Assembly (NCBI GenBank): GCA_944381495.1
Contig: CALWLJ010000003.1
Coordinates: forward strand, 124,001-188,000
Direction: 5' to 3'
DNA from: an uncultured Mediterraneibacter sp.
GTDB lineage: Bacteria > Bacillota > Clostridia > Lachnospirales > Lachnospiraceae
DNA length: 64,000 nucleotides
Shown here: positions 39,597 to 55,200 of the stretch, piece by piece
Layout of the letters: the number at the start of each line of letters is the position of its first letter
How positions within the stretch are numbered: the first letter of the stretch is position 1
Translations under genes and position numbers: made by a program
Notes under the pieces: generated by a model
Seen by the model: the letters and a program-made list of their open reading frames with translations, nothing else
Database searches by the model: none
Told to the model about the DNA's origin: nothing

Positions 39597-40535
39597 TTAT
39601 TCTTCATCCTCCAGCACTTTCAGGATCATCCTGTCCCTTTTCTTCTCTTCATTTTCCAGATCGCTCTCTCCGTAGGTATAGAAGCCTTTTCCTGTGGCAA
39701 TACCAAGATTTCCTTCCCTGACCAGGTCTTCCAGAAGTCTGTTTTCTTTTTTCTCATCGGACAGATCCGGATACAGGTATCTGGCAACATCCCGGAAGAC
39801 TTCGACGCCGCCCAGATCTACGATCTTAAAAGGTCCGGAGCAGGTATATCTGAGGCCGTTTCCATAGCGGATCGTGCGGTCGATATCTTCAGGATCAGCG
39901 ACGCCGCTTTCCACCAGATATGTTGCTTCTCTCAGCAGAGCAAACTGCAGTCTGTTGGAGAGAAATCCTTTTACATCTTTTTTCAGGCGTACCGGCTTTT
40001 TATCCATTGAAGCAAAAAGCTCATAGAGGATATCGCAGGTCTCCTGGCTTGTCCTGCTGCCCTTTGTGATCTCTACCAGGGGGATAATGTGGGGCGGATT
40101 CAGGAAATGAGTCCCGCAGAATCTCTCCGGATGGGATACAAAGGCGCTCAGATCATCGATGGAGATGGCCGAAGTGTTACTGGTCAGGATGGCGTCTTCT
40201 TTTACAAAAGATGATATTTCTTCATAGAATTCCTTTTTCATCTCAATGTGTTCCGGGATCGCTTCGATGACCAGATCTGCGTCTCTGAAGCATTCCTTAT
40301 CTGTTGTAAGACAGATGGATTCTTTTATTTTTTTTGATTCTTCTGCTGTCAGTCTGCCATTTTCCACAAGCACCTGCTGACTTTTATCGATCACATGACA
40401 GGCCTTTACAAAGTCCATCTCACTGACGCTGTAAAGCACTGTATCGTAGCCATACTGCGGGAACATCTGGCTGATTCCCGCGCCCATAAGTCCGCCTCCG
40501 GCGATAACAACTTTACGGATTTCTTTTATACTCAT
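39597..40535 (-). CDS. 3-Hydroxyacyl-CoA dehydrogenase
   Basis: NAD-dependent enzyme of 312 residues. The dinucleotide fold reads VVIAGGGLMGAGISQMFPQYGYD, ILTSNTSAISID and FCGTHFLNPPHIIPLVEI contain the catalytic serine and histidine, and VKGFLSNRLQFALLREA with a later GNGLRYTCSGPFKIVDLGG is the C-terminal domain. It resembles 3-hydroxybutyryl-CoA dehydrogenases but is closer in style to 3-hydroxyacyl-CoA/L-gulonate-type enzymes, so substrate is open. It is transcribed away from the 4-hydroxybutyrate dehydrogenase gene, and both have MerR-type promoters in the shared gap. Confidence 0.85.
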   Translation of the reverse strand: MSIKEIRKVVIAGGGLMGAGISQMFPQYGYDTVLYSVSEMDFVKACHVIDKSQQVLVENGRLTAEESKKIKESICLTTDKECFRDADLVIEAIPEHIEMKKEFYEEISSFVKEDAILTSNTSAISIDDLSAFVSHPERFCGTHFLNPPHIIPLVEITKGSRTSQETCDILYELFASMDKKPVRLKKDVKGFLSNRLQFALLREATYLVESGVADPEDIDRTIRYGNGLRYTCSGPFKIVDLGGVEVFRDVARYLYPDLSDEKKENRLLEDLVREGNLGIATGKGFYTYGESDLENEEKKRDRMILKVLEDEE

Positions 40536-40625
40536 ATCTTGAATTCCTCCCTTGTCTTGATAAATCAGATCCCAGTCATGATATGTTCTCTGATATCTGT
40601 AAACGGATCAAAAACTACGGAACTA

Positions 40626-40656
40626 AGGATAAACCTTGTTTTCGTAACAGAGTCAA
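40626..40656 (-). promoter_or_regulatory. MerR-type promoter A (3-hydroxyacyl-CoA dehydrogenase)
   Basis: On the minus strand TTGACT (40656-40651), a 19-base spacer CTGTTACGAAAACAAGGTT, then TATCCT (40631-40626). The spacer carries the dyad ACTCTGTT/AACAAGGT. Spacers of 19-20 bases are the hallmark of promoters activated by MerR-family proteins. Confidence 0.7.
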
Positions 40657-40756
40657 TACTTTAAAATATAAGAATATTTCATCTGATATACGCTTCAAAT
40701 ACTGTTGAATACGTTTCTGCATCTTTTCCCGCTATAAGAATTACCTGATTTTTCAC

Positions 40757-40787
40757 TTGACTCTGTCTCAGGGACAGGTATTAAAAT
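40757..40787 (+). promoter_or_regulatory. MerR-type promoter B (4-hydroxybutyrate dehydrogenase)
   Basis: TTGACT (40757-40762), a 19-base spacer CTGTCTCAGGGACAGGTAT, then TAAAAT (40782-40787). The spacer dyad is CTGTC/GACAG. It lies 93 bases before the start codon. Promoters A and B point away from each other and are about 100 bases apart; the rest of the 344-base gap is A/T-rich leader. Confidence 0.7.
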
Positions 40788-40879: not shown

Positions 40880-41995
40880 ATGAATACATTTCAGATCAGA
40901 CCAGAAATTCATTTACTCGATAAGGCCGGGGAGCTGACAGAGCTTTTTCCTCTTACGGAAAGAGATCTTGTATTTACAAGCAGACATGTCTATCAGAACT
41001 ATTTCGACGGTGCCTTTGCTCCGGCAAGGGTTATCTTTCATACAGATTACGGGACCGGGGAGCCATCGGACCGCTTTTTCGAGACCATGCTGGATGATAT
41101 CGATCTTGACCGGTACGACAGGATCATCGCCATCGGAGGCGGCACCATTCTGGACACGGCCAAGCTGCTCACACTCCGCAGGATCCGACCGGTCGGGGAT
41201 CTGTTTGATAAGAAGTTCCCGGCTGAAAAGGTCCGCAGCCTGATCCTGGTTCCCACGACATGCGGAACCGGAAGTGAAGTTACGAATGTCTCCATCCTGG
41301 AATTTGTAGACAGGCACACCAAATTCGGACTGGCGGTGGACGCCCTCTATGCAGATCACGCTGTTTTGATCCCGGAGCTGATCGAGAAGCTTCCCTTCTC
41401 TGTATTTGCCACAAGCTCCATCGACGCCTTTATCCACGCCATAGAGTCCTACGTATCTCCGAAGGCCACTGTATTTTCAGAGATGTACTCGAAGAAGGCC
41501 ATGGAAATGATCCTCAATGGATACATGAAGATTGCAGGAGAAGGGCATGCTGTGCTTCCTTCTCTGACAAAAGACTTTCTTACAGCCAGCTGCTACGGCG
41601 GGATTGCCTTTGGCAATGCAGGAACCGGTCCGGTCCACGCCATGAGCTATCCGTTAAGCGGTACGTACCACGTGCCTCACGGCGAATCCAACTATGTTTT
41701 TTTTACAACTGTCTTCCACAAATATCAGGAGCTGAAACCGGACGGAAAGATTGCGGAGCTGAACCGTTTTCTCGGAAATATACTGGGCTGTACGCCGGAT
41801 GACGTATATACAGAACTGGAAAAACTGTTCAACCAGATCATTACCAAAAAGTCCCTCTCCGAATATGGTGTAACAGAAGAAGACTTGCCTGCATTTGCAG
41901 AAAATGTCTGCACGAAGCAGGGACGTCTCATGCAGAATACTTATACTCCGCTGAGTTATGATGTTATTCTGGAAATGTTCCGGTCTCTGATGTAA
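40880..41995 (+). CDS. 4-Hydroxybutyrate dehydrogenase (iron-containing alcohol dehydrogenase family)
   Basis: Reduces succinate semialdehyde to 4-hydroxybutyrate with NADH. The 371 residues match the Clostridium kluyveri enzyme in length and in long segments: IIAIGGGTILDTAKLL, LVPTTCGTGSEVTNVS, HAIESYVSPKATVFS, KAMEMILNGYM, GIAFGNAGTGPVHAMSYP and YHVPHGESNY with metal-binding histidines. The ATG at 40880 is preferred to a GTG at 40871 because it gives the family N-terminus. It starts a three-gene run with an iron-sulfur protein and a Sel1-like protein, under promoter B. Confidence 0.88.
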   Translation: MNTFQIRPEIHLLDKAGELTELFPLTERDLVFTSRHVYQNYFDGAFAPARVIFHTDYGTGEPSDRFFETMLDDIDLDRYDRIIAIGGGTILDTAKLLTLRRIRPVGDLFDKKFPAEKVRSLILVPTTCGTGSEVTNVSILEFVDRHTKFGLAVDALYADHAVLIPELIEKLPFSVFATSSIDAFIHAIESYVSPKATVFSEMYSKKAMEMILNGYMKIAGEGHAVLPSLTKDFLTASCYGGIAFGNAGTGPVHAMSYPLSGTYHVPHGESNYVFFTTVFHKYQELKPDGKIAELNRFLGNILGCTPDDVYTELEKLFNQIITKKSLSEYGVTEEDLPAFAENVCTKQGRLMQNTYTPLSYDVILEMFRSLM

Positions 41996-42100
41996 AAGGG
42001 CTGCTCAGCCGGCACGAATGCCGCGCAGAACTGCTGTTGCTGAAAGAACCTCTGTAATATATAAAAGCCGCACACCATCAGCGGCGGAATGGAGATATTT

Positions 42101-42838
42101 ATGACACTGAGTCAGGAAATCGAAAAACTTATATCTGCCATGGCGGAGAATCATGCAAAAAGCCGGTATTACCGCAGACCGATCGTAGGATATGCAAGCG
42201 CGGAAGACCCTCTGTATGACCAGCTGGATAAGATCATCGGAAACCCTCAGATCCATCCCCGTGACATGCTCCCCGGGGCCAGGACCGTGATCGTCATTTT
42301 TCTTCCATATTCAGAAATCGTATATAATGACATGAAAAACGGGCTTCTGACTTCATCCGTATACTCGGACGCATATATGCACACCAACGCGCTGCTGGAC
42401 GATATGGCCGCAAAGACAGGAGAGCTGCTGGCATCAAAAGGATACCGCAGTGCCAGCGAACCTCCTACGGAAAACTTTAACCACGTGACAAAGACCGCAA
42501 GCTGGGGGCACAAGTCCAACGCAGTCATTGCCGGGATCGGCACCTTCGGTCTGAATCATCTGATCATCACCAGATCCGGGTGTCTGGGCCGCATGACCAG
42601 TATCGTTACAGACGCATACATCGAGCCGGGAAAGCGGCCGGAGCGTTCTTACTGCCTGTTCTATCAGACAGGAAAATGCCGGAAATGTGTGGACAACTGT
42701 CCGTCCGGAGCGCTCTGTTCGGACGGAACTATTGATAAAAGGCGGTGTGACGCCTATCTGGAAGGAAAAAATATACATGACTGGCAGCAAGGCTGTCCAC
42801 AGTGCGCTCTGGGGCCCTGCGCCATGCGGGGATTCTGA
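42101..42838 (+). CDS. Double [4Fe-4S] cluster protein, epoxyqueuosine reductase-like
   Basis: A 245-residue protein with a QueG-like N-terminal region (DMLPGARTVIVIFLPYSEIV, GHKSNAVIAGIGTFGLNHLIIT) and a C-terminal cluster region CRKCVDNCPSGAL plus later cysteines in RRCDAYLEG and GCPQCALGPC, enough for two [4Fe-4S] clusters. It lacks the full QueG C-terminus, so a tRNA-modifying role is doubtful; such short homologues often act as electron carriers or activators beside anaerobic enzymes. The start at 42101 has GGAG six bases upstream. It follows the 4-hydroxybutyrate dehydrogenase gene by 105 bases. Confidence 0.72.
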   Translation: MTLSQEIEKLISAMAENHAKSRYYRRPIVGYASAEDPLYDQLDKIIGNPQIHPRDMLPGARTVIVIFLPYSEIVYNDMKNGLLTSSVYSDAYMHTNALLDDMAAKTGELLASKGYRSASEPPTENFNHVTKTASWGHKSNAVIAGIGTFGLNHLIITRSGCLGRMTSIVTDAYIEPGKRPERSYCLFYQTGKCRKCVDNCPSGALCSDGTIDKRRCDAYLEGKNIHDWQQGCPQCALGPCAMRGF

Positions 42839-43908: not shown

Positions 43909-43923
43909 GCAAAGACAGAACAG

Positions 43924-43973
43924 AAAACCGGTGAGCGCGATCAGACTTCTAACTGATCACACTCACCGGTTTT
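43924..43973. terminator. Bidirectional terminator between convergent operons
   Basis: AAAACCGGTGAG and GATCAG (43924-43943) pair with CTGATC and CTCACCGGTTTT (43953-43973). It covers the stop codon of the D-2-hydroxyacid dehydrogenase gene and ends both operons. Confidence 0.8.
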
Positions 43974-45013
43974 CCATGGAGATAAGAGATATAATTTTCC
44001 ACTGCAATCTTTACAGCTCGCAGCCGCGCTTCACGCGGCTGCCATGCAATATGGGAAGTAATATATGTATAGGGGCTTTCCATGAGAGGGAGCCTTTCAG
44101 CTGGAGGCTCTTCTGCGACCACATCCAGCCCCGCCATATAGACTTTCCTTGTGTTCAACGCATCCAGAAGCGCGTCTTCGTCGATAATCCCGCCTCTTGC
44201 GGTATTGATCAGAATCACTCCTCTGCGCATTCGTTCAAAGGCACTGCGGTCAAACATCCGCTCTGTCTCACTGGTCAGAGGGCAATGGATCGATATAACG
44301 TCCGCCCGCTCCAGCAGTTCCTCAAAGGAAACCTGTTCCACCGTTCCCCCCGCAACTTTTAGCGAGTCTGCCGGTTTTGCGGAAGACGCTCCGGGTTTTC
44401 CTGTTCTCCTGCAGGCAATTACCTTCATGCCCATTCCCAGGGCCATCTCAGCCATACGGCTGCCAATCTTTCCGAGCCCCACGATTCCCAGTGTCTTTCC
44501 AGACAGTTCGATCTGCGGAGTCATGACGCTGAAGTAATTTACATCTTCATTTCTGCTCCTTTTCTCCCAGTATTCGTTCTTTGTAAAATGGCTGTTCCTT
44601 GACACATCATGGCATATATTCAGCAGAAGCGCCATGGCATATTGGGCGATCGTACGGTCGCCGTAAATCGTATTCGTTACAGTGACACCATATTTCTTCG
44701 TAATATTCCGGTCAAATTCCCGGTACCCGTGATCCAGTGTCGCTATATATTTTACATTAGGATGCAGCTGAAAAAATGTCTCATTGACAAGTCCCGGATG
44801 TATCCCCGGACCAAGTACAGCATCCGCGTCCCCTATCTCATCCCGGAAACTGTCCGCCCGCAGACTGCCCTTCATCAACATGATCCGGTAAGCACCGATT
44901 TCAGCGGGATATTTGCCAAGTTCACGTTTCCACTGATCCGCCATATCCTGCCATGAAAGCTGATCCAGATGAGGATCTGACTGAAAAATGACCAGTTTCT
45001 TTTTCTGTCTCAT
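43949..45013 (-). CDS. D-2-hydroxyacid dehydrogenase family protein
   Basis: A 354-residue NAD-dependent dehydrogenase. The nucleotide fold is LGIVGLGKIGSRMAEMALGMGM; catalytic residues are in INTARGGIIDED (Arg), VVAEEPP (Glu) and SHIAWQPREA (His). The middle contains DRTIAQYAMALLLNICHD, as in glycerate, glyoxylate and D-lactate dehydrogenases. It is the last gene of the transporter operon. The substrate could be a 2-oxoacid produced by the neighbouring lyase and aminotransferase enzymes; it cannot be named from sequence. Confidence 0.85.
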   Translation of the reverse strand: MRQKKKLVIFQSDPHLDQLSWQDMADQWKRELGKYPAEIGAYRIMLMKGSLRADSFRDEIGDADAVLGPGIHPGLVNETFFQLHPNVKYIATLDHGYREFDRNITKKYGVTVTNTIYGDRTIAQYAMALLLNICHDVSRNSHFTKNEYWEKRSRNEDVNYFSVMTPQIELSGKTLGIVGLGKIGSRMAEMALGMGMKVIACRRTGKPGASSAKPADSLKVAGGTVEQVSFEELLERADVISIHCPLTSETERMFDRSAFERMRRGVILINTARGGIIDEDALLDALNTRKVYMAGLDVVAEEPPAERLPLMESPYTYITSHIAWQPREARLRAVKIAVENYISYLHGKPVSVIS

Positions 45014-45029
45014 CTGTAATCCTCCCGCT

Positions 45030-46064
45030 TTATTTTATTCCGGTTCCTCCACAGAGAATATCCCCGATCCGGTCAATATCCCAGTTTCCCGACGTCAGAA
45101 CAAATGCGATATTCTCATCAGGTTCCGCTTTATATTCACCGCTGAGCAAGGCAGCGATTCCTACAGAAGAGGAGGGTTCTGCAATAAGCTTGGCCTCTGC
45201 TGCAATCAGTCTTACAGCCTCACGAATATCATCTTCTCCTACAGAGATCCATTCATCTACATATTTTTCAAGAATGGGGTAGGGATTGATCCCTGGTTTC
45301 CGCGCAGTCAGCCCATCAGCAATCGTAGGTGTCAGCTCAATTTCAACCGGATGTCCTGCTTTCATGCTCTGAACATATCCGTCATTTCCTTTTGCCTGTA
45401 TCCCCACTACTTTCACAGTGGACTTCAGGGTTTTTACTGCAGTGGCAACTCCGGACAGGAGACCGCCGCCTCCTACCGGCACAATCACTGTATCAATGCC
45501 CGGCATATCTTCCATGATCTCAAGGCCAAGCGTACCCTGTCCGGCCATGACTTCATAGTCTTCGTAAGCATGAACAATGGTATAGCCGTGTTTTGCAACT
45601 TCTTCCCGCACCATTTTCCAGCGTTCATCATAAATACGGGGGCCTATCAGTACCTCGCCGCCCAACCGTTCAATATCTCCTATCTTGGCTTTCGGCACAT
45701 CTTCCGGCAGAACCACGATTACCCGTATTCCCATCATCTTCCCGATCAGAGCACAGGCTTTCCCGTGATTTCCAGAGGAGCTGCATATGATTCCTCTTTC
45801 CCGTTCTTCCTGTGTAAGTCCGAGAATTTTGTTCAGCGCTCCTCTCATCTTAAAAGCTCCGGAAATCTGAAGCATCTCCGGCTTCACCCAGGCTCTGCAT
45901 TTCAGTCTTTCATCCATTGACCGTTCTCTGAGCAGCGGCGTTCTCCGGATATATGGGCGGATTCTCTCTGCCGCACATCGTATTTTTTCTATATTTAATG
46001 CTTTTTCAATCAGCTCTTTTTCTTCCATAGTAAATATACTCCCTGCGGATTTGCTTTGTTTCAT
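45030..46064 (-). CDS. Threonine dehydratase-like PLP enzyme (beta-hydroxy amino acid dehydratase)
   Basis: Fold-type II PLP enzyme of 344 residues (332 if translation starts at 46028, which also has a GGGAG site). The cofactor lysine is in LQISGAFKMRGALN, the asparagine loop in SSSGNHGKACAL, the phosphate loop in VPVGGGGLLSGVA. There is no ACT domain, so it is a catabolic or specialised enzyme rather than IlvA. It follows the ornithine cyclodeaminase-family gene by 18 bases. The same two families pair as BhcB/BhcD in the beta-hydroxyaspartate cycle and EutB/EutC in hydroxyectoine use, so a dehydratase feeding an imine reductase is likely. Confidence 0.8.
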   Translation of the reverse strand: MKQSKSAGSIFTMEEKELIEKALNIEKIRCAAERIRPYIRRTPLLRERSMDERLKCRAWVKPEMLQISGAFKMRGALNKILGLTQEERERGIICSSSGNHGKACALIGKMMGIRVIVVLPEDVPKAKIGDIERLGGEVLIGPRIYDERWKMVREEVAKHGYTIVHAYEDYEVMAGQGTLGLEIMEDMPGIDTVIVPVGGGGLLSGVATAVKTLKSTVKVVGIQAKGNDGYVQSMKAGHPVEIELTPTIADGLTARKPGINPYPILEKYVDEWISVGEDDIREAVRLIAAEAKLIAEPSSSVGIAALLSGEYKAEPDENIAFVLTSGNWDIDRIGDILCGGTGIK

Positions 46065-46082
46065 CAGATTCGTTCCTGAAAA

Positions 46083-47075
46083 TCAGGCAAGGAAATCATA
46101 CGTAGTTCCCAGCCCCATTTTCACTGCCTTAGCATAAATGGCTGCTGCTGTCACAGTATCCTGGATCGCCATGCCTACAGTATCGAAGATTGTAATTTCA
46201 TCCGGATTTTCCCTTCCGGGTTTCCTGCCCAAAATGATCTCTCCGATTTCTCCATAAACATCCGTCTCTTTTATAATTCCTTCTTCTACCGCATGATGCG
46301 TCTCTCCGTTTTTCAGGCAGAGTCCGGTAGAATCTGTTACTGCTTTCGCCCCTGCAAATATATCCGCGCTTAACTCCTGCTTATCCGGCATGTCAGATCC
46401 GATAGCGGCAATATGAGTGCCGGGCTTCAGCCATTCTCTCTTCACTGCCGGTCCCCGGCGTCCTCTTGTGGCGGTAACCACGATATCTGCCTGGCGGACC
46501 GCTTCTTCTGCTGAATTGCAGACATGTACCGGTATGGAAAGCTCCGCTTCCATCTCCTTTGCGTACTCCGCGGCATGTTCTTCACTGTAGCTCCACACAT
46601 AAATATTTTTCAGTGACCGGACTCTGGAAATGGCTCGAAGCTGGCGGCGCGCCTGATTCCCCGATCCGATCATACAGAGTGTATCCGCATCCTCACGCGC
46701 CAGATATTTTACTGATATCGCCCCTGCCGCTGCGGTGCGGCAGCCAGTAATCCATGTTCCGTCCATAGCGCATATCAGCTCACTTGTATCCGCAGCATAG
46801 AGATAGACCATGTTCAGTCCTGTAGGAAGACCCAGCTTCGGATTATCCGGATAACCGCCGGAAGAGGACTTCATCGTTATGTACCCGCTTCCCATATCCA
46901 GACCGCCTTTAAAATCAAACCCGGTATGAGTCCCGGGTTTTACAATAGACATAAAATCTGGCATCACTACTTTCCCGCTGCAGAAGGAAGCATATCCCGA
47001 TTCCACTGCCGCAAGCACTTCATCCAGATCTATACATGTTCCCACTTCTGTTTTGTTCAGTAATAATGTTGGCAT
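46083..47075 (-). CDS. Ornithine cyclodeaminase/mu-crystallin family reductase
   Basis: NAD(P)-dependent enzyme of 330 residues. The nucleotide-binding segment is TLCMIGSGNQARRQLRAI, preceded by TGCRTAAAGAISVKYLA, the family substrate region, and followed by VVTATRGRRGP and HIAAIGSDMPDKQEL. Members act as ornithine cyclodeaminase, alanine dehydrogenase, ketimine reductase or iminosuccinate reductase. The absence of a proline-pathway context and pairing with a threonine dehydratase-like enzyme favour an imine reductase. Two bases separate it from the kinase-like gene upstream. Confidence 0.82.
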   Translation of the reverse strand: MPTLLLNKTEVGTCIDLDEVLAAVESGYASFCSGKVVMPDFMSIVKPGTHTGFDFKGGLDMGSGYITMKSSSGGYPDNPKLGLPTGLNMVYLYAADTSELICAMDGTWITGCRTAAAGAISVKYLAREDADTLCMIGSGNQARRQLRAISRVRSLKNIYVWSYSEEHAAEYAKEMEAELSIPVHVCNSAEEAVRQADIVVTATRGRRGPAVKREWLKPGTHIAAIGSDMPDKQELSADIFAGAKAVTDSTGLCLKNGETHHAVEEGIIKETDVYGEIGEIILGRKPGRENPDEITIFDTVGMAIQDTVTAAAIYAKAVKMGLGTTYDFLA

Positions 47076-47077
47076 AT

Positions 47078-47686: not shown

Positions 47687-47702
47687 TCTTTTTCACCTCC
47701 GG

Positions 47703-48407
47703 TTATCTTGTAGAATATTTACGGCTGTGTTTCTCCATGAGCTCTACTGCAAACTGACAGATCGTACAGATAATAAAGTAAACGATCGCTGCTACAATAT
47801 ATGCTTCAAGGAACTTGGAGGACCGTCCTGCAACAATCCTTGCACGCCCCAGTATCTCAGGAATGGCAACGGCAAATGCAAGGGAAGCGTCCTTGATCGC
47901 TCCGATAAAGTTATTACCGATATTCGGAAGCGCTGTCGAAAAGGCCTGGGGCAGAACCACCCGGATCATTCCCTGACGGGTCGTCATACCTACTGTGTAA
48001 CACGCTTCCAGCTGTCCCGGATCAACCGCTTCAATACAGCTGCGGAACATTTCTGTCATATAGGAGCCGTAATAAAGCGAGAAACAGAAAAACATGAAAT
48101 AAATCGCCGGAATACTGTTTACATTCATATTCGTGCCCCATCGATAATTCAGGTACTCCAGAATTCTCGGTATGCCATAGTATGTTACAAGAATCTGAAC
48201 CATCAGCGGAGTTCCCCGGATAATGGCGATATAAACACCTACGATCTGACGCAGGACAGGCACCTTAAAAAAACGAACCAACGCACACAGAAGACCTATG
48301 ATTCCTCCTGCCAAAAGTGCAACTACCGCGATAATAATCGCATTGGGCACTCCCCGTATAATCTCCGGGAAACACTCGAACATATACTGTATATCTAAAC
48401 CTCGCAT
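47703..48407 (-). CDS. Amino acid ABC transporter permease
   Basis: A 234-residue inner-membrane protein of the polar amino acid (HisM/GlnP) class with five hydrophobic segments and the EAA loop EACYTVGMTTRQGMIRVVLP. Other family segments are YIAIIRGTPLMVQILVTYYG and LPNIGNNFIGAIKDASLA. The start at 48407 is preferred (AAGGAG nine bases upstream, overlapping the ATPase stop). Only one permease gene is present, so it probably forms a homodimer. Confidence 0.9.
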   Translation of the reverse strand: MRGLDIQYMFECFPEIIRGVPNAIIIAVVALLAGGIIGLLCALVRFFKVPVLRQIVGVYIAIIRGTPLMVQILVTYYGIPRILEYLNYRWGTNMNVNSIPAIYFMFFCFSLYYGSYMTEMFRSCIEAVDPGQLEACYTVGMTTRQGMIRVVLPQAFSTALPNIGNNFIGAIKDASLAFAVAIPEILGRARIVAGRSSKFLEAYIVAAIVYFIICTICQFAVELMEKHSRKYSTR

Positions 48408-48413
48408 AAGCAT

Positions 48414-49160
48414 TTACTCCTTTATCTTATTCAGGAACTGTCTTGTCCGTTCATTCTGAGGATGATCGATCACTTCCGCAGGAGTTCCTTCTTCTACAAC
48501 AACCCCGCCATCCATGAAAACAACTTTGGACGCCACATCATGAGCGAATCCAATCTCATGGGTTACAACAATCATGGTGATTCCTGTCTCCGCAATTTCT
48601 TTCATCGTTTCAAGCACCTCGCCTACCAGCTCCGGATCAAGAGCAGATGTAGGTTCATCAAAAAGTATGACGTCCGGCTGAAGCACCAGCGCTCTGGCGA
48701 TTCCTGCTCTCTGCTGCTGTCCTCCGGACATCTGAACCGGGTAGTAATTCAACCGGTCTCCCAAACCGACGCGCCTGAGCATTTCTTCACTTCGTTCTCT
48801 TGCTTCCCGTTTTCCCACCTTCTGGACAACAGTAAGTCCTTCCATTACGTTTTCCAGCACTGTTTTATTCTTAAACAAGTTATAATTCTGAAAGACCATT
48901 GCCGTTTTTCTGCGAAGCTCAAGGATCTGACGTTTTCCCGCTGTCCTGCAGGGCACTTCATATCCATTAACGGCTATCGATCCGTGATCCGCACGCTCCA
49001 GAAAATTAATGCATCTGAGAAAAGTAGTTTTCCCGGAGCCGCTCGGCCCCAGGATAGAAACTACTTCGCCTTTGTTTACAGTAAGGTTCACGCCCTTCAG
49101 TACTTCCAGATCACCAAAGGACTTATGTATTTCTGAACATTTAACAATTATCTCACTCAT
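48414..49160 (-). CDS. Amino acid ABC transporter ATP-binding protein
   Basis: A 248-residue ATPase of the polar amino acid uptake family: Walker A GPSGSGKTT, AMVFQNYNLFKNKTVLENV, signature MSGGQQQRAGIARAL, Walker B ILFDEPTSALDPELVGEV and VVTHEIGFAHDVA. GGAG lies eight bases before the ATG at 49160; a GTG at 49169 is less likely. It energises uptake together with the permease and lipoprotein genes on either side. Confidence 0.93.
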   Translation of the reverse strand: MSEIIVKCSEIHKSFGDLEVLKGVNLTVNKGEVVSILGPSGSGKTTFLRCINFLERADHGSIAVNGYEVPCRTAGKRQILELRRKTAMVFQNYNLFKNKTVLENVMEGLTVVQKVGKREARERSEEMLRRVGLGDRLNYYPVQMSGGQQQRAGIARALVLQPDVILFDEPTSALDPELVGEVLETMKEIAETGITMIVVTHEIGFAHDVASKVVFMDGGVVVEEGTPAEVIDHPQNERTRQFLNKIKE

Positions 49161-49174
49161 CCGACCCACTCCAA

Positions 49175-50080
49175 TTATGATTCATGTGCTGCCTGGTACT
49201 CTTCCAGCGTTGCCTCCTTAAATACACCGTTTTCCGGCATACTCGTTACTCCGCTGTCTGTTCCAAGATATTCATTAGCCAGTTTTTCCAAAGTTCCGTT
49301 ATAATACAGTTCCGGCAGATATTTATCAAAGATATCTGCTATTTTCTGTCCTTTGTCTGTTTTTGCGAAAAGGAAATAACTAAAACCACCGTTATAGATT
49401 TCGTCTGAAATATGCAGCCGGTCTTCAATTCCTATGATTGCCGCTCTGTCATGTGCTGCCGAAGGATCGTTAAATGTAGCGTCCACACGCCCGTTGACAA
49501 TTTCTTCCAGCATCTGCGGAAGTGTTCCATCCAGATACTGAATGGTAAATGCATCCGGATGATCATCCAGATATTCTTCCAGCTGTGTAGTAAATGAACT
49601 TCCTACAATTGCTCCAACCGTTTTTCCCTTCAGATCTTCCAGTGTATCCAGCGGTTCATCAGCAGAAGAGATAACCGCAGAACCACAAAATAGGAACGGA
49701 ACCTTCGGATACAGATACATTTCCTCTCGTTCATCTGTGATTCCCAGCTGATTTGTTACCAGGTCATATCTGTCCGCGTCAAGTCCGGGAAGCAATGTAT
49801 CCCACTGTGTATAGGAATACTCACATTCAATCTCCGGAGCCAGTTCATCAATGGCACGAATCACTTCGATATCATATCCGGTAATATTATCGTTTTCATC
49901 TACATATGTATACGGATCGTAATCCGGCGTCCCTGCGACTCTCACTGTAATTACCGAAGAATCACTGCTGTCATCTGTTTCTGATCCCTCTGCCGTGCCG
50001 GAATCCGATGAACTACATGCAGCAAGACTTCCTGTCATTGCCACTGCCAAAAGTACTGCAAGCCACTTTCTTCTTTTCAT
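49175..50080 (-). CDS. Amino acid ABC transporter substrate-binding lipoprotein
   Basis: A 301-residue extracellular lipoprotein. The signal peptide KRRKWLAVLLAVAMTGSLAAC ends in lipobox LAAC at the start of the mature protein; a serine-rich linker follows. The family signature GTPDYDPYTYVDENDNITGYDIEVI and NQLGITDEREEMY mark a polar amino acid receptor (SBP_bac_3). The start at 50080 has AGGAGG nine bases upstream; an open frame to 50257 is not used. It heads the operon under MerR-type promoter C, so its ligand is probably related to the MerR inducer. Confidence 0.92.
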   Translation of the reverse strand: MKRRKWLAVLLAVAMTGSLAACSSSDSGTAEGSETDDSSDSSVITVRVAGTPDYDPYTYVDENDNITGYDIEVIRAIDELAPEIECEYSYTQWDTLLPGLDADRYDLVTNQLGITDEREEMYLYPKVPFLFCGSAVISSADEPLDTLEDLKGKTVGAIVGSSFTTQLEEYLDDHPDAFTIQYLDGTLPQMLEEIVNGRVDATFNDPSAAHDRAAIIGIEDRLHISDEIYNGGFSYFLFAKTDKGQKIADIFDKYLPELYYNGTLEKLANEYLGTDSGVTSMPENGVFKEATLEEYQAAHES

Positions 50081-50111
50081 AATAATCATCCTCCTGATCT
50101 TGATTTCTGTA

Positions 50112-50165: not shown

Positions 50166-50171
50166 TCCCAT

Positions 50172-50202
50172 ATGCTAAACTCTGTTCCCGTAACAGAGTC
50201 AA
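50172..50202 (-). promoter_or_regulatory. MerR-type promoter C (transporter operon)
   Basis: On the minus strand TTGACT (50202-50197), a 19-base spacer CTGTTACGGGAACAGAGTT, then TAGCAT (50177-50172). The dyad ACTCTGTT-ACGGG-AACAGAGT is perfect over eight bases per arm, the best of the four sites. It lies 15 bases after the merR stop. Confidence 0.75.
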
Positions 50203-50216
50203 GAACTTTTTTATTT

Positions 50217-51059
50217 TTATTCTTCCAGCAGGATCTGCACCTCATATGGACACTCATGGTATTCTACCAGATTATCCTCATATTCATTGGCGATCACATA
50301 TGCCGGCTTTTTGTATTTTTTCATATATTTCCGCAGAAGTCCGGATTCCCATTCCCCTGCACAGATACGGGACCGGAAGCAGAGATATATTCCCGCAGGC
50401 AATTCCATGATGTTTGGATGGTCGAAAACTCTGTCCCTGACATAGACAAAATACTTCTTCGGAGCAAAGTCTCCTGCTGCCAGAGCATCGTAGTCTGCCA
50501 GGAATCCGAATTGCCGCTGATACCTGAGCCGGTCCATACCCTCGCTGTTTTTCAGGGCCGCCAGCCGTGTCTCCACAGTCTCCACATTATCTTCAGCTCC
50601 ATAATCCACTGTCAGGATCCATCGCTTCTCATGTCTTACCAGATAAGGAACTCCTTCAAAGTCATACTGCTGCAGATAGGAAAAATATTCCTGATACCAC
50701 AAAATATCTTCATACATCTCATTGATATGTTTCCGCTCTTCCTCAACCTTCTCCCGCTGCTTCTCCAGCAGTTTCTGCATGGTCTCGACCGTTCCTTCCC
50801 GCAGAATCTCCTGGATATCCGACAGAGACATTCCCAGACTCCTCAGATATTTGATCCTGTCTATGTAGTGAAACTGACGGAAAGAGTAATATCTGTATCC
50901 GCTCTCTTCATCCACCACATCCGGCGTAAGAAGTCCTGCGTTGGAATAATTTCTCAACATCTGCACGGAAATTCCCATCAGCCTTGCTGTCTCTCCGATG
51001 GAATACAAATGGAGATGCGTTTCTTCATCATTTCTTCTCTCTTCGTTACTTTTCTCCAT
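50217..51059 (-). CDS. MerR family regulator with C-terminal effector domain
   Basis: A 280-residue regulator. The N-terminal winged helix reads YSIGETARLMGISVQMLRNY and GYRYYSFRQFHYIDRIKYL; a long dimerisation helix follows (about 85-125). The C-terminal 150 residues resemble the GyrI/BmrR-type small-molecule-binding domain. No metal-binding cysteine pattern of MerR or CueR is seen, so an organic ligand is likely. The start at 51059 has GGAGG six bases upstream and overlaps the PLP lyase gene by 14 bases. Four promoters with MerR architecture lie within 15 kb. Confidence 0.85.
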   Translation of the reverse strand: MEKSNEERRNDEETHLHLYSIGETARLMGISVQMLRNYSNAGLLTPDVVDEESGYRYYSFRQFHYIDRIKYLRSLGMSLSDIQEILREGTVETMQKLLEKQREKVEEERKHINEMYEDILWYQEYFSYLQQYDFEGVPYLVRHEKRWILTVDYGAEDNVETVETRLAALKNSEGMDRLRYQRQFGFLADYDALAAGDFAPKKYFVYVRDRVFDHPNIMELPAGIYLCFRSRICAGEWESGLLRKYMKKYKKPAYVIANEYEDNLVEYHECPYEVQILLEE

Positions 51060-52248
51060 AAGCCGCCTCCAGTGCATTCAGGAAATCATGGATGATATCC
51101 TGCTCTTCCTCGATTCCCACGGACACTCTCAGCAGACCGTTGCTGATCCCCATTGCCTTTCTCTCTTCTTCCGGTACGTTGGAGTGAGAAGAAAGCGGCG
51201 GATAGGAAAGCGTGGTCCGGTATCCGCCCAGCGTCATTGCATAATGAGCCAGATTCATACTCCTCAGGAACAGATTCATCTTGTCTCTGTCCTCATCCAC
51301 CTCAAAACTCAGCATACCGCCGTAATACGGACCGAATTCTCTCTCAGCGATGTCATGCTGCGGATGATCCGCAAGACTTGGATGAAATACCTTCTTCACA
51401 TAAGGCGACTTCTCAAGAGCTGCAGCCAGAGCCGCCGCATTTTCACTCTGTCTCTTCACTCTCAGGTTCAGAGTACGGATACCTCTGCACACGAGCCAGG
51501 AGGAAAATGGATCTGCCTGAGTGCCAAGAAGGACCTGAAGATTATACATCTTGCGGATCAGCTCCTCACTTCCCGTAGCGGCGCCGCAGACCGCGTCGGA
51601 ATGACCGTTGGCGAACTTGGTCAGACTGTTAACCACGATATCTGCGCCCAGCTTCAGCGGCTGGACCTGCGCCCCGGTCATAAACGTATTGTCTACGATC
51701 AGAATGGCTCCGTTTTCGTGAGCAATCTCCGCTGCCGCGCTAATATCCGGAACACCGATCAGCGGATTGGAAACTGTTTCTGTATAAAGGATTACCGTAT
51801 TATCCTTTATTTTAGACCGGACATCGTCCAGATCCGTAAAGTCCGCAAACGTAGTTTCTACCTGATATTTACTCAGGATATCTTCAAATATCTCTATCGT
51901 CTCCCCATAAAGGGTCTGGTCCGAAAGGATATGATCCCCCGCCTTCGTATTGGCAATGAGAGCCGTTGAGATTGCCGCCATTCCGGAAGAACAGGAGATG
52001 GATGCCGCTCCTCCTTCCAGGCAGTTCATCAGTTCATTCAGCGCTGTCCGGTTAGGATTGCGGTTTCTGTTATAGCAATAGCCGCCCACTTCATAACGGC
52101 GCTCCAGATCTTCCAGATCATTTACATTGTGTGCTGTAGACATATGGATCGGAAGCGCCTCCGGATTGGTGGTTTCGCGGTCAAAGTATGCCCCCTCATT
52201 CAGCAGCTTTGTTCCAAATCCCCACTGTTCATCTATTTTTCCTATCAT
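51046..52248 (-). CDS. Cys/Met metabolism PLP-dependent lyase/transferase (copy 1)
   Basis: Fold-type I enzyme of 400 residues of the cystathionine gamma-lyase, gamma-synthase and methionine gamma-lyase family. The cofactor lysine is in VVNSLTKFANGHSDAV, the substrate arginine near the C-terminus in GLLRVSVGIEEEQDIIHDF, and YCYNRNRNPNRTALN and CSSGMAAISTAL are family motifs. The start at 52248 has AGGAGGG seven bases upstream. It precedes merR on one transcript. A divergent second copy lies next door; the exact reaction (gamma-lyase, beta-lyase or synthase) cannot be read. Confidence 0.85.
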   Translation of the reverse strand: MIGKIDEQWGFGTKLLNEGAYFDRETTNPEALPIHMSTAHNVNDLEDLERRYEVGGYCYNRNRNPNRTALNELMNCLEGGAASISCSSGMAAISTALIANTKAGDHILSDQTLYGETIEIFEDILSKYQVETTFADFTDLDDVRSKIKDNTVILYTETVSNPLIGVPDISAAAEIAHENGAILIVDNTFMTGAQVQPLKLGADIVVNSLTKFANGHSDAVCGAATGSEELIRKMYNLQVLLGTQADPFSSWLVCRGIRTLNLRVKRQSENAAALAAALEKSPYVKKVFHPSLADHPQHDIAEREFGPYYGGMLSFEVDEDRDKMNLFLRSMNLAHYAMTLGGYRTTLSYPPLSSHSNVPEEERKAMGISNGLLRVSVGIEEEQDIIHDFLNALEAAYGEK

Positions 52249-52355
52249 GATCTTCCCTCCTGTTTCTGCCTTATTCTTATTGAAATCTTCCTGCAGCCGC
52301 CTGCCGGACAAATGTCAGCTCTTTCAGGAAAGAGGACGCCTGCCCGGCTTATCGC

Positions 52356-52395
52356 CAAAAAAAGAAAAGGACGCCTGACAAAATGCCAAGCGCCC
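52356..52395 (-). terminator. Leader terminator of the lyase-merR operon
   Basis: On the minus strand GGGCGCTTG (52395-52387) pairs with CAGGCGTCC (52377-52369) using two wobble pairs, then TTTTCTTTTTTT. No gene on this strand lies upstream, so it is a true leader terminator. A second CAGGCGTCC at 52344-52336 could compete for the same left arm. Confidence 0.6.
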
Positions 52396-52411
52396 TTGCT
52401 GCATGCTATGT

Positions 52412-52441
52412 ATTCTATATCAGTTATTTTTCATTTGTCAA
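52412..52441 (-). promoter_or_regulatory. Promoter of the lyase-merR operon
   Basis: On the minus strand TTGACA (52441-52436) and TAGAAT (52417-52412) are 18 bases apart. It lacks the MerR dyad and may give basal merR expression. It is back to back with promoter D. Confidence 0.6.
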
Positions 52442-52477
52442 GAGCCTTCCTCAAGAAAATATTTTTTGTTTTTCTGC

Positions 52478-52508
52478 TTGACTCTAACCTCAGGACAGAG
52501 TGTATAAC
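52478..52508 (+). promoter_or_regulatory. MerR-type promoter D (lyase-gabT operon)
   Basis: TTGACT (52478-52483), a 19-base spacer CTAACCTCAGGACAGAGTG, then TATAAC (52503-52508). The dyad is reduced to ACTCT/AGAGT. It lies 31 bases before the start codon. Confidence 0.68.
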
Positions 52509-52538
52509 CGATTTATAAAAATTTTGGAGGTTGGACTT

Positions 52539-53750
52539 ATGGAAAAATTTGAATTTGACGATATCACATTTTCTGAAGACACAAGGCTTCTCTACGAGGG
52601 ACACCATGTAAACGGTATGGACATCTCACCGGAGGCATTTCCCCTGTTCATGACAACAGCCTTTAATATGGGAAATCTGGACGATGTGGCAAGAACCTAT
52701 GATGAGAAAGGCTACACCTACATCCGTACCCGCAACCCCAACCGGAAATCTCTGGCGGATGTGCTGACATTTCTGGAGCAGGGCGCGGATTCTCTGATCT
52801 TCTCATCCGGCATGGGCGCCATCACGACTACATATTTCGCCCTTTTTAAACCCGGAGACCATATGATCTGCAACTCCAATATATATGGAGAGACTTTTGA
52901 CGCCATTACTTCTCTCGTCAAAAACTATGGTGTGGAGACAGACTTTGTACCCTTTGATGACCTGGATGCCGTCAAGGCAGTGATCCGTCCCAATACCCGT
53001 ATGCTCTATACAGAAGTGGCAAGCAATCCGACAGATCGTCTCTGCGATATCGAAACTCTGGCCGGGATCGCTCACGACGCCGGCGCCCTGCTGATGGTAG
53101 ACAATACATTTACAACACCTTTCTGCATCAAGCCGCTGACACTTGGCGCAGACATCGTCATCAACAGCCTGACCAAATTCCTGAACGGCCACTCCGACGC
53201 CCTTGCCGGATCCATCACAGTAAAGGATATGGCTCTCTATGAGCAGATCCATACCGTCCGTATGCTCACCGGTACATCCGGATGCCCCTTTGCATCATGG
53301 ATGATCTTCCGCGGTATCCACACCGCCGGGCTCAGGATCAAAACCCAGTGTGAAAATGCAGCAAAACTTGCTCTGGCACTGGATCAGAATCCTCATGTAA
53401 AGACTGTCAATCATCCTGCGGTACCAAGCCATCCTCAGCATGACCTGGCGGAGAAACTTTTCTCTTCTCCTTACCTGGCGACAGGAATGTTCAGCTTCGA
53501 GATGCCGAATGACCGTGCGAAGATCAACGCTTTTATGGACCGGCTGCACATTGCCAACTACGCGCCTACTCTGGGCGGTATCCGCACCACACTGTCCTAT
53601 CCGCTGCTCTCCTCCCACATGCATGTGCCGGAAGAAGACCTGAAGAAGATGAACATCAGCGGCGGACTGATGCGTGTGTCCACCGGAATCGAAAGCGCTG
53701 ATGATCTGATCAAAGATTTCACACAGGCTCTGGAAGTCTTTGACGATTAA
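52539..53750 (+). CDS. Cys/Met metabolism PLP-dependent lyase/transferase (copy 2)
   Basis: A 403-residue relative of copy 1, clearly diverged from it. The cofactor lysine is in VINSLTKFLNGHSDALAG; YTYIRTRNPNRKSLADVL, IFSSGMGAITTTYF and LMRVSTGIESADDLIKDF are family motifs. GGAGG lies eight bases before the ATG; an upstream start at 52500 falls inside the promoter -10 region and is rejected. It heads the operon with gabT under promoter D. Two paralogues flanking one regulator suggest successive or alternative substrates. Confidence 0.85.
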   Translation: MEKFEFDDITFSEDTRLLYEGHHVNGMDISPEAFPLFMTTAFNMGNLDDVARTYDEKGYTYIRTRNPNRKSLADVLTFLEQGADSLIFSSGMGAITTTYFALFKPGDHMICNSNIYGETFDAITSLVKNYGVETDFVPFDDLDAVKAVIRPNTRMLYTEVASNPTDRLCDIETLAGIAHDAGALLMVDNTFTTPFCIKPLTLGADIVINSLTKFLNGHSDALAGSITVKDMALYEQIHTVRMLTGTSGCPFASWMIFRGIHTAGLRIKTQCENAAKLALALDQNPHVKTVNHPAVPSHPQHDLAEKLFSSPYLATGMFSFEMPNDRAKINAFMDRLHIANYAPTLGGIRTTLSYPLLSSHMHVPEEDLKKMNISGGLMRVSTGIESADDLIKDFTQALEVFDD

Positions 53751-53775
53751 TCTATAAAATGCGGAGTGATCCGCA

Positions 53776-53811
53776 GCTGTCAGGGGCAGGCTTCCTTTCG
53801 CCCCTGGCAGC
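53776..53811 (+). promoter_or_regulatory. Intercistronic hairpin before gabT
   Basis: GCTGTCAGGGGC (53776-53787) pairs with GCCCCTGGCAGC (53800-53811) with one mismatch. No T-run follows. A smaller GCGGA-GTGA-TCCGC hairpin lies just before it. Parts of this region recur near 11455-11525. Confidence 0.5.
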
Positions 53812-53844
53812 ATAAAACACGAAATATGAAAGAAGGTTGTTAAT

Positions 53845-55200
53845 ATGCTTAGAACGGATTTACCTGAGATCATAACAGATACACTGCCCGGACCGAAAGC
53901 AGCGGCCGTGATCGAACGAAGGAAAAATGCGACTCCCTCTGCCATCGGCTGCGTTTATCCCGTAGTTATCAAACGGGGCGAAGGAGCCATGATCGAGGAT
54001 GTGGACGGAAATAAATTTCTGGACTGGGTAGGCGGCGTAGGCGTGCTGAACATCGGCTATTCCCAGCCTGAGATCATCGAGGCAGTCAAAGAGCAGGCAG
54101 ACCGGTATTTTCACGGGATGTTTAATATCGTAACACATGAAGGATATGTAAGCCTGGCAGAAAAACTGACAGAAATCGCTCCTGTTAAGGGTGATAAGAA
54201 GAAAGCCTTCTTCGCCAACAGCGGCGCCGAGGCAGATGAAAACGCCGTAAAGATCGCCAAAGCTTATACCGGACGCCCCAACATCATCGTCTTTTCCGGC
54301 GCTTTCCATGGCCGCACCATGCTGACCATGACCATGACTTCTAAAAAGGCCTATACCAGAAAACTGGGTCCGCTGGCGCCGGGTGTTTTCCGGGCACGGT
54401 TCCCGTACTATTACAGGAATCCCGAGGGAATGCCTCAGGAAAAGGCACTGGACTATTACATGCAGTCTATCCGGAATGTATTTGAAGAATGCGGAGCTCC
54501 GGAGACTATCGCTGCCATGGTCGTGGAACCCCTTCAGGGAGAAGGCGGATTCATACCAGCTCCTATCGAGTGGATCCAGGCGGTCCGGAAAGTCTGTGAC
54601 CAGTACGGCATCCTGCTCATCGCCGATGAAGTTCAGAGCGGCTTCTGCCGTACCGGAAGGATGTTTGCTTCTGACTACTGGAAAGAGGCCGGCGTGCTGC
54701 CGGATATTCTGGCTACAGCCAAATCCATCGCGGCTGGCATCCCTCTTTCCGCCATTGTCGCAGGCGCTGACATCATGGATGCTGTCGCCCCGGGTACCAT
54801 CGGTGGCACATTCTGCGGAAATCCTCTGGCCTGTGCCGCTTCGCTCAAGACCATTGAGATCATGGAAAGAGATCATCTGGCGGAGCGTGCCTGCCAGATC
54901 GGCGAAAAAGTCTCTGCCCGCTACAGAGATATGATGGATCGTTATCCGGTCATCGGAGATGTACGCGGCATGGGAGCCATGATCGGAATTGAGTTTGTCA
55001 AAGACAAAGAGACAAAAGAGCCGGCTCCGGAACTGACAGCCGCTGTCATTCAGAACTGTGCATCCATGGGGCTCATCGTAGAAGGTGCCGGAACGTACAA
55101 CAATGTCATCCGTTTCCTTGCTCCCCTTGTGATCACTGATGAACAGCTGGAAGCAGGACTCGATATTTTTGAAAAAGCAGTCAAAATGAGTATAAATTAG
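53845..55200 (+). CDS. gabT: 4-Aminobutyrate aminotransferase
   Basis: Class III PLP aminotransferase of 451 residues, similar to E. coli GabT along its length: FLDWVGGVGVLNIGYSQPEI, FFANSGAEADENAVKIAKAY, FSGAFHGRTMLTM, VVEPLQGEGGF, LIADEVQSGFCRTG, the cofactor lysine in TAKSIAAGIPLSAIV, GGTFCGNPLACAA and GDVRGMGAMIGIEF. It would convert GABA to succinate semialdehyde, the substrate of the 4-hydroxybutyrate dehydrogenase at 40880, which has the same promoter type. Other omega-aminotransferase substrates remain possible. It is second in the promoter D operon and is followed by a terminator. Confidence 0.85.
   Translation: MLRTDLPEIITDTLPGPKAAAVIERRKNATPSAIGCVYPVVIKRGEGAMIEDVDGNKFLDWVGGVGVLNIGYSQPEIIEAVKEQADRYFHGMFNIVTHEGYVSLAEKLTEIAPVKGDKKKAFFANSGAEADENAVKIAKAYTGRPNIIVFSGAFHGRTMLTMTMTSKKAYTRKLGPLAPGVFRARFPYYYRNPEGMPQEKALDYYMQSIRNVFEECGAPETIAAMVVEPLQGEGGFIPAPIEWIQAVRKVCDQYGILLIADEVQSGFCRTGRMFASDYWKEAGVLPDILATAKSIAAGIPLSAIVAGADIMDAVAPGTIGGTFCGNPLACAASLKTIEIMERDHLAERACQIGEKVSARYRDMMDRYPVIGDVRGMGAMIGIEFVKDKETKEPAPELTAAVIQNCASMGLIVEGAGTYNNVIRFLAPLVITDEQLEAGLDIFEKAVKMSIN

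What the first reader, a model, noticed from the sequence alone, without database searches (positions are those of the whole stretch)
39597..55200. A MerR regulon with four 19-base-spacer promoters spanning 15 kb
Four sites (40626-40656, 40757-40787, 50172-50202, 52478-52508) share TTGACT followed by CT, exactly 19 bases of spacer, a dyad of ACTCTGT/ACAGAGT type and a -10 box. Each lies in an intergenic region and points at a gene of one locus that encodes a MerR regulator with an organic-ligand-type domain. I found no such site elsewhere in the 64 kb. Targets are a 3-hydroxyacyl-CoA dehydrogenase, a 4-hydroxybutyrate dehydrogenase, an amino-acid ABC operon and a lyase-gabT operon. MerR proteins usually control one or two promoters, mostly for metals or drugs; control of a whole amino-acid fermentation locus would be new to me.
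Basis: partly seen in the sequence, partly recalled or inferred. Interest (0 to 1): 0.85.

Follow-up and report, generated by a model that had tools for sequence, protein, structure and literature searches.

The report
Amino-acid breakdown switch with four promoters
A drug-sensor-like bacterial switch protein appears to turn on, through four matching DNA sites, a whole set of genes for taking up and fermenting amino acids; the same wiring recurs in distant relatives, which makes it a real but still untested regulatory system.

Summary
The four sites are where stated, each with TTGACT, a 19-base spacer and a -10 box. They are the only 0- or 1-mismatch matches in the 3.19 Mb genome. A matrix trained only on 19 sites from other genomes finds exactly these four above 10 bits in the 64 kb. 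In the nine nearest relatives' genomes (regulator 44-54% identical) the same kind of site occurs, and in all ten genomes, window included, one precedes the same lyase gene. One relative has eight sites, one about 50 kb away and one on another contig. Selected on -35 plus operator alone, 33 of 34 matches have a -10 box at exactly 19 bases. Outside this group the sites are often weak or missing.

The regulator has the full-length fold of BmrR, a multidrug sensor. Best reading: a BmrR-type activator-by-distortion that senses an amino-acid-like ligand and switches on uptake plus catabolism. Binding, activation and ligand are inferred.

MerR-family control of several amino-acid operons is known (LiuR, PMC3223726). 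New, as far as searched, is the BmrR-fold, 19-base-spacer version in Bacillota.

The parts
40626..40656 (-). Site 1: TTGACT-19-TATCCT promoter/operator for the 3-hydroxyacyl-CoA-dehydrogenase-like gene
   Evidence: 31 of 31 bases kept in sister species G350
40757..40787 (+). Site 2: TTGACT-19-TAAAAT promoter/operator for Fe-ADH, Fe-S protein, Sel1-like protein
   Evidence: 29 of 31 bases kept in G350
50172..50202 (-). Site 3: TTGACT-19-TAGCAT promoter/operator (8 of 8 dyad pairs) for the seven-gene ABC operon
52478..52508 (+). Site 4: TTGACT-19-TATAAC promoter/operator for lyase2-gabT
50217..51077 (-). MerR-family regulator, BmrR fold over its full length
   Evidence: Pfam MerR_1; phmmer to BmrR; AlphaFold2 pLDDT 87.7; Foldseek top eight hits all BmrR
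39597..40535 (-). 3-hydroxyacyl-CoA-dehydrogenase family protein (HAD3), target of site 1
   Evidence: Pfam 3HCDH_N and 3HCDH
40880..41995 (+). Fe-type alcohol dehydrogenase, 4-hydroxybutyrate-dehydrogenase-like; target of site 2
   Evidence: Pfam; nearest solved chain 30sm Cvir-Hbd2, 384 bits; curated 4-hydroxybutyrate model 96.6 bits, cut-off 500
42089..42838 (+). Fe-S protein distantly like QueG, probably same operon (gap 93 bases)
   Evidence: weak matches below cut-off; relatives in site-led operons of L037, L039, L040, L043, L044, L045
42952..43908 (+). Sel1-like protein (weak match), probably same operon
   Evidence: Sel1 25.7 bits, cut-off 30.7
49175..50080 (-). Amino-acid ABC substrate-binding protein, first gene after site 3
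   Evidence: best model: cystine type, below cut-off
47703..49169 (-). ABC ATPase (48414-49169) and permease (47703-48413)
   Evidence: best models: cystine type, below cut-off
43949..47686 (-). Rest of site-3 operon: cytidylate-kinase-like, OCD/mu-crystallin, PLP (PALP), D-2-hydroxyacid dehydrogenase
   Evidence: intergenic gaps of 2-18 bases
51046..52248 (-). lyase1: Cys/Met-metabolism PLP enzyme, same strand as and overlapping merR; no site of its own
   Evidence: no further matrix hit of 10 bits or more in the window
52539..53750 (+). lyase2: Cys/Met-metabolism PLP enzyme (methionine/cystathionine-lyase type), most conserved target
   Evidence: preceded by a site in 10 of 10 genomes of the regulator's group
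53845..55200 (+). GabT-like aminotransferase, probably same operon as lyase2
   Evidence: TIGR00700 504.1 bits, cut-off 506.65

Best explanation
The locus is a self-contained amino-acid catabolism regulon. The MerR protein at 50217-51077 is a BmrR-type dimer with a DNA-binding head and a small-molecule pocket. It binds the operator inside the 19-base spacer of four promoters. Without ligand these promoters are poor because the -35 and -10 boxes are 2 bases too far apart. When an amino-acid-like ligand (probably the substrate of lyase2 or a related amine) fills the pocket, the dimer kinks the spacer so RNA polymerase can use both boxes. This switches on uptake (ABC transporter) and breakdown (lyase2, GabT, Fe-ADH, 3HCDH, PALP, OCD, D-2-hydroxyacid dehydrogenase): 13 of the 15 genes of the locus, operons inferred from strand and gaps. 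Shown here: the sites, their rarity, the fixed 19-base spacing, the BmrR fold, and conservation of the array with the regulator in its own group. Inferred from BmrR and MerR biology: binding, activation by distortion, the kind of ligand.
For: Matrix without window sites returns exactly the four sites. Matrix from the four window sites alone has a true site as top hit in 14 of 15 foreign loci, chosen from those known to carry sites (miss: L049). Full matrix: 1 hit of 20 bits or more in 684,749 bases of control MerR neighbourhoods, against 23 of 23 training sites at 26 or more. In the regulator's group (9 rows with support 98/94, plus L051 as next branch, joined at only 87/64) 10 of 10 genomes have a site, 9 of 10 have two or more, and in 10 of 10 a site precedes lyase2. 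In 299 family genomes several matches (four each, up to 1 mismatch) occur only in the two foreign genomes with the regulator; G042 and G194 have one each; reversed control 0. Those two genomes' sites helped design the pattern, so only the absence elsewhere is informative. Spacing: 33 of 34 matches have 4 or more of 6 -10 matches at 19 bases, at most 11 of 34 at any other spacing from 14 to 23. BmrR fold: phmmer about 4e-11, profile 1.1e-28, Foldseek 1.5e-13, TM 0.73. BmrR E253 aligns with E267, nearly invariant in 22 sequences (its role in the pocket is recalled). BmrR activates a 19-bp-spacer promoter by distortion (PMC7722741, passages).
Against: No binding or expression data. Sister species G350 has no regulator match at 1e-20 (genome 89% complete) yet keeps sites 1 and 2 and an intact Fe-ADH, so the sites are not strictly tied to the regulator; recent loss fits, as the 3HCDH gene there is already cut to 137 codons. 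7 of 22 wider-family loci (L048, L052-L056, L059) have no site of 22 bits or more; L052 and L055 have a lyase2-like gene all the same. Of 28 short order-level loci only 11 have a site of 20 bits or more; L103, L104, L111, L112, L116 and L118 have regulator and lyase2-like gene side by side without one. Site 2 has a weak dyad. Several site-led genes elsewhere are exporters, so a detoxification role is not excluded. Curated enzyme models were not reached, so the substrate is open.
Confidence: 0.8

Rival explanations
1. The regulon is real but defensive: the BmrR-like protein senses a toxic amino-acid analogue (for example a plant non-protein amino acid) and the lyases, hydrolases and exporters destroy or expel it, rather than fermenting a nutrient.
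For: BmrR fold is a multidrug sensor. Exporter-type genes are first after a site in G340 (MatE), G508 (MatE), L060 (EamA) and L057 (MFS), and lie further down site-led operons in G054 (MatE) and L045 (EamA). An AstE/AspA-type hydrolase follows sites in L040 and L175, an M20 peptidase in G026.
Against: Importers (amino-acid ABC, oligopeptide ABC, Na+:alanine symporter) are site-led in window, L039, L040, L043-L045, L050, L060, L172, L175-L177, and redox enzymes typical of fermentation accompany the lyase in the window and in L040.
Confidence: 0.2
2. The four sites are operators of a different MerR-family regulator elsewhere in the genome, and the local MerR controls something else.
For: Sites 1 and 2 persist in G350 without a detected local regulator. 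The -35/ACTCT half is shared by many MerR operators. Some relatives with the regulator lack strong sites.
Against: Sites in foreign genomes sit next to orthologues of this regulator and precede the same gene in ten genomes. Among 299 family genomes the multi-site ones are those with the orthologue.
Confidence: 0.08
3. The sites are ordinary sigma-A promoters that look alike by chance or by recent duplication.
For: Only four sites in this genome; the -35 box is near consensus.
Against: 19-base spacing in 33 of 34 matches, matrix cross-validation, and conservation of 31/31 and 29/31 against 76/100 for the sequence between them in G350.
Confidence: 0.03

Closest known systems
BmrR of Bacillus subtilis (MerR family, multidrug-binding)
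   Same: Full-length fold (Foldseek E 1.5e-13, TM 0.73), 19-base-spacer promoter (PMC7722741, passages), glutamate aligned with BmrR E253.
   Different: BmrR regulates a drug-efflux transporter (abstract of PMC7722741 as seen); here four promoters of uptake and catabolic genes. Only 18-20% identity to BmrR in the fold alignment.
LiuR regulon of Proteobacteria
   Same: MerR-family regulator of amino-acid catabolism over many operons (predicted, nine in Shewanella; PMC3223726, passages).
   Different: Described as a repressor, in Proteobacteria, for branched-chain amino acids. LiuR sequence and sites were not compared here.
GlnR/TnrA of Bacilli
   Same: MerR-family proteins with regulons in Bacillota; a GlnR regulon paper on Streptococcus mutans (PMC4959772) was seen in search listings only.
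   Different: Match to this regulator only weakly and in the head (E 0.0013 and 0.059 or worse). Role in glutamine/nitrogen genes and different operator mode are recalled, not tested.
MerR-MatE pairs of related genomes (G340, G508)
   Same: Related regulator (38% and 28% identical) and matching site.
   Different: One site in front of one MatE-type gene in the stretch read; no array found there.
Ornithine-fermentation operon with the same regulator type (G517)
   Same: MerR relative (40%) beside a matching 19-base-spacer site leading into 2,4-diaminopentanoate dehydrogenase, PALP and ornithine aminomutase genes.
   Different: One site, one operon, another amino acid; separate branch of the regulator tree.

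Membership tests
MerR family of transcription regulators | MerR winged-helix DNA-binding domain and dimerisation helix | tested here: met
   Pfam MerR_1 54.8 bits (cut-off 21.6), MerR, MerR-DNA-bind; model with helix 97-137
MerR family of transcription regulators | Operator dyad inside a 19-20-base promoter spacer | tested here: met
   33 of 34 matches with -10 at 19 bases; dyad full in site 3, partial in 1 and 4, weak in 2
MerR family of transcription regulators | Ligand-dependent activation by DNA distortion | not testable with these tools
   Inferred from BmrR (PMC7722741)
BmrR-type (GyrI-like ligand domain) subfamily | GyrI-like C-terminal ligand domain | tested here: met
   Top eight Foldseek hits are BmrR over 274-285 columns; profile match to BmrR; no Pfam model matched the C-terminal part at E up to 10
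BmrR-type (GyrI-like ligand domain) subfamily | Acidic pocket residue (E253 in BmrR) | tested here: met
   Aligned with E267, nearly invariant in 22 sequences; function of E253 recalled
BmrR-type (GyrI-like ligand domain) subfamily | Binds cationic lipophilic drugs | not testable with these tools
   no ligand data
LiuR regulon | Orthology to LiuR | not tested
   LiuR sequence was not compared
LiuR regulon | Control of branched-chain amino-acid (liu, ivd, bkd, ldh) operons | tested here: not met
   No such operon recognised among the window targets

The most novel reading that the evidence does not exclude
A multidrug-sensor fold (BmrR) has been recruited, across Lachnospiraceae, Negativicutes and other Bacillota, as a dedicated sensor of free amino acids that controls whole fermentation programmes through arrays of 19-base-spacer promoters, with sister branches assigned to other amino acids such as ornithine.
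Probability: 0.5. Interest if true: 0.65.

Novelty: new variant of a known kind. Interest (0 to 1): 0.52.

Why it matters
Regulation of amino-acid fermentation in gut and other anaerobic Bacillota is poorly mapped (my judgement). A sequence-readable operator with a conserved regulator gives a direct way to predict which genes act together in an unknown amino-acid pathway, and a small set of candidate ligands to test. It also widens what the BmrR multidrug-sensor fold is used for. Nine full-text searches listed no paper on a BmrR-type amino-acid regulon in Bacillota; that library holds only open-licence papers, and only the listed results were looked at.

Tried and rejected
Tried without result: single-protein scan of genome contigs (no relative); Rfam over 36-58 kb at gathering thresholds (none) and over 52200-52540 at E up to 10 (seven matches, all below their gathering scores); literature searches for a MerR family regulator with methionine gamma-lyase (0 papers), with canavanine lyase (nothing relevant among the 8 listed), with ornithine genes (PMC8803604 checked, its only 'merr' is an author name).

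Rejected: a larger hidden regulon in the own genome, because matches up to 3 mismatches (83) do not exceed the reversed control (117). The genus-wide scan at up to 1 mismatch (23 matches in 17 of 58 genomes, against 36 reversed-control matches in 29 genomes by my count of the table) is no more than chance plus other MerR sites; 0-mismatch hits were G000 (4), G350 (2) and G346 (1, context not looked at). Rejected: ectoine degradation as the pathway, considered because EutB/EutC models score on PALP/OCD; both fall far below cut-offs.

Left open: the substrate. The three ABC components score best on cystine-type models but below cut-off, and lyase2 is nearest methionine gamma-lyases among solved chains. 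A sulphur or homoserine-type amino acid is therefore a guess.

Counting notes: L042 and L051 are the same genomes as G054 and G026 and were left out of the target list. Two of the 34 matches are palindromic reverses, so 32 separate sites. Matrix training sites come mostly from the regulator's group, hence the cross-validation; its 15 foreign loci were picked from loci already known to carry sites (L050 and L058, which also carry sites, and the loci without sites were not given to it). L034/L035 and L036/L037 are pairs from two genomes. In some searches Fe-ADH was given without its first codon (from 40883).
Full report
Observation. The four sites are present as described. All have TTGACT, CT, 19 bases to a -10-like box, and lie between genes, in front of HAD3, Fe-ADH, an amino-acid ABC operon and lyase2-gabT. 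The pattern built from them gives 8 matches in the window up to 3 mismatches against 0.99 expected; no other match has fewer than 3. In the 3.19 Mb genome the four are the only matches with 0 or 1 mismatch; five have 2, and the total (83) is below the reversed control (117), so only the four stand out. Of the 79 others, 25 were scored with the full matrix and reach at most 13.6 bits.

Independent test. Because a pattern made from four sites matches them by construction, I trained a matrix on 19 sites from other genomes. Its only hits of 10 bits or more in the 64 kb are the four sites. Conversely, a matrix from the four window sites alone ranks a real site first in 14 of 15 foreign loci, which were chosen from loci known to carry sites (the miss is L049). 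The full matrix has one hit of 20 bits or more in 684,749 bases of 41 control loci, which are themselves neighbourhoods of more distant MerR genes. 24 of those 41 control loci carry MerR-type sites of the same general build (25 hits), so the -35/ACTCT half is generic; the shared operator and the array are what define this regulon.

Spacing. Choosing matches by -35 and operator only (25 columns) in ten genomes gives 34, of which 2 are palindromic reverses. At 19 bases 33 of 34 have 4 or more of 6 matches to TATAAT; at other spacings from 14 to 23 bases at most 11 of 34 do. The operator columns were trained largely on these same sites, but the -10 columns were not used in the selection.

Relatives. 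The regulator is rare in its family: at E 1e-30, 3 of 299 family genomes including its own; at 1e-20, 2 of 58 genus genomes including its own, the second (G340) a 37% match to the head region only. With a three-sequence profile, 29 of 392 order genomes match at 1e-30, many with more than one copy. A scan of named genomes gave 63 loci, 22 of them (L039-L060) at E 1e-25 or better, from Lachnospiraceae, Selenomonadaceae (Pectinatus, Propionispira), Bacillaceae and others. Of these 22, 15 have at least one site of 22 bits or more and 7 do not (L048, L052, L053, L054, L055, L056, L059). A tree of 45 regulators puts the window protein in a supported clade of 9 (98/94), with L051 as the next branch (87/64, weak); the tool warned of long branches, L051 among them. 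All 10 of these genomes have sites, 9 have two or more, and in all 10 a site precedes lyase2. Genome G026 (= L051) has eight sites: six around the regulator, one about 50 kb away before a kinase-like gene and an oligopeptide-type ABC operon, and one on another contig before a PALP gene. So the regulon would act in trans there.

Limits of conservation. Outside this group the picture is weaker. L052 and L055 have regulator and a lyase2-like gene but no strong site. Of 28 short order-level loci (L103-L130) 11 have a site of 20 bits or more and 17 do not; L103, L104, L111, L112, L116 and L118 have regulator and lyase2-like gene side by side without one. These may use a different operator or be paralogues. 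I lowered the probability of the widest reading from 0.55 to 0.50 when recounting this.

Presence and absence. In the family, the clade-type pattern (up to 1 mismatch) occurs in 4 of 299 genomes: four sites each in G026 and G054, the two foreign genomes with the regulator, and one each in G042 and G194, next to MatE-like genes judged by eye; the reversed control is 0. The window's genome is 0 in that scan because its operator differs (mostly GT...AC where relatives have AT...AT).

Natural deletion. In sister species G350 (same genus, 85-97% identical DNA in the aligned blocks) the stretch from about 43557 to 55247, with regulator, lyases, ABC operon and gabT, is missing at this place, and HAD3 is cut to 137 codons, but Fe-ADH is intact. 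No regulator was found elsewhere in that genome at 1e-20; the other genes were not sought elsewhere. Site 1 is kept 31/31 and site 2 29/31, against 76/100 between them. This footprint argues that the sites were under constraint; their survival without the regulator argues for a recent loss or a second user, and counts against a strict one-to-one link.

Protein. The regulator has a MerR head and matches BmrR over most of its length by sequence (phmmer about 4e-11; profile 1.1e-28). The AlphaFold2 model (mean pLDDT 87.7, pTM 0.64) has BmrR entries as its top eight Foldseek hits, TM 0.69-0.73. BmrR E253 aligns with E267, nearly invariant among 22 relatives; that E253 is the key pocket residue is recalled. 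In the recognition region the window protein has M40 where the other 21 rows have T or S, a candidate cause of the changed operator (inference).

Targets and function. Site 1: HAD3. Site 2: Fe-ADH, an Fe-S protein, a Sel1-like protein. Site 3: substrate-binding protein, ATPase, permease, kinase-like, OCD, PALP, D-2-hydroxyacid dehydrogenase with gaps of 0-18 bases. Site 4: lyase2, gabT. That is 13 of 15 genes; lyase1 and merR have no site. Operon membership is inferred from strand and gaps. Fe-ADH is nearest a chain named Cvir-Hbd2, GabT falls just below the curated GABA-aminotransferase cut-off (504.1 of 506.65), and the ABC genes score best on cystine-type models, below cut-off. In relatives, site-led genes are amino-acid or oligopeptide importers, Na+:alanine symporters, lyases, hydrolases, and some exporters. 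In G517 a related regulator and site lead into the ornithine 4,5-aminomutase and 2,4-diaminopentanoate dehydrogenase genes. The common theme is amino-acid uptake and breakdown. The ligand is unknown.

Mechanism. BmrR activates a 19-bp-spacer promoter by kinking DNA, and 28 surveyed MerR promoters all have 19- or 20-bp spacers (PMC7722741, passages). By homology I infer the same here.

Novelty. Multi-operon amino-acid control by a MerR-family protein exists: LiuR, described as a repressor of branched-chain amino-acid use, predicted to control nine operons in Shewanella (PMC3223726, passages), and the GlnR regulons of Bacilli (PMC4959772, listing only). A BmrR-fold, 19-base-spacer array version in Bacillota was not among the papers listed by the nine searches. 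I rate it a new variant of a known kind.

Noticed in passing
window 52248-52441 (-): The lyase1-merR operon has a near-consensus promoter (TTGACA-18-TAGAAT) followed at once by a 14-pair terminator-like hairpin with a T tail (52397-52367), then a further leader: a possible attenuator, matching no Rfam family at gathering score. The scan found 3 terminator-like sites where shuffles give 2.0, so the hairpin alone is weak evidence.
   Followed up: partly
window about 43557-55247 versus L170/L171 (G350): A roughly 11.7-kb block with the regulator and most of its targets is absent at this place in a sister species, with the neighbouring 3HCDH gene truncated.
   Followed up: partly
L180 8934-15324 (genome G517): Related BmrR-like regulator beside a matching site leading into an ornithine-fermentation operon.
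   Followed up: partly
L179 7061-8072 (genome G323): Another MerR gene flanked on both sides by a nearly identical operator (TTGACTCTGCAGTTACTACAGGATTTA), each leading to a large unidentified gene; G355 has a like pair of sites.
   Followed up: no
L047 188 and 6738 (Bacillus sp. 03113): Two identical 31-base sites 6.5 kb apart in one locus, one of them before lyase1.
   Followed up: no
genomes G427, G446, G468, G570, G638 (family f17): Three matches to this regulator in one genome (some partial), with site-led Na+:alanine symporters, lyases and hydrolases in the stretches read.
   Followed up: partly
L103, L104, L111, L112, L116, L118: Regulator and lyase2-like gene side by side but no site of this type in the short stretch held: a possible second operator type.
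   Followed up: no
window 36606-37370 and 55249-57887 (-): The locus lies between genes that read by eye as pyrE and pyrD-pyrK-pyrF (names recalled, not tested).
   Followed up: no
window 50217-51077, residue 40: Window regulator has Met in the recognition helix where 21 relatives have Thr or Ser, alongside a changed operator half-site.
   Followed up: no
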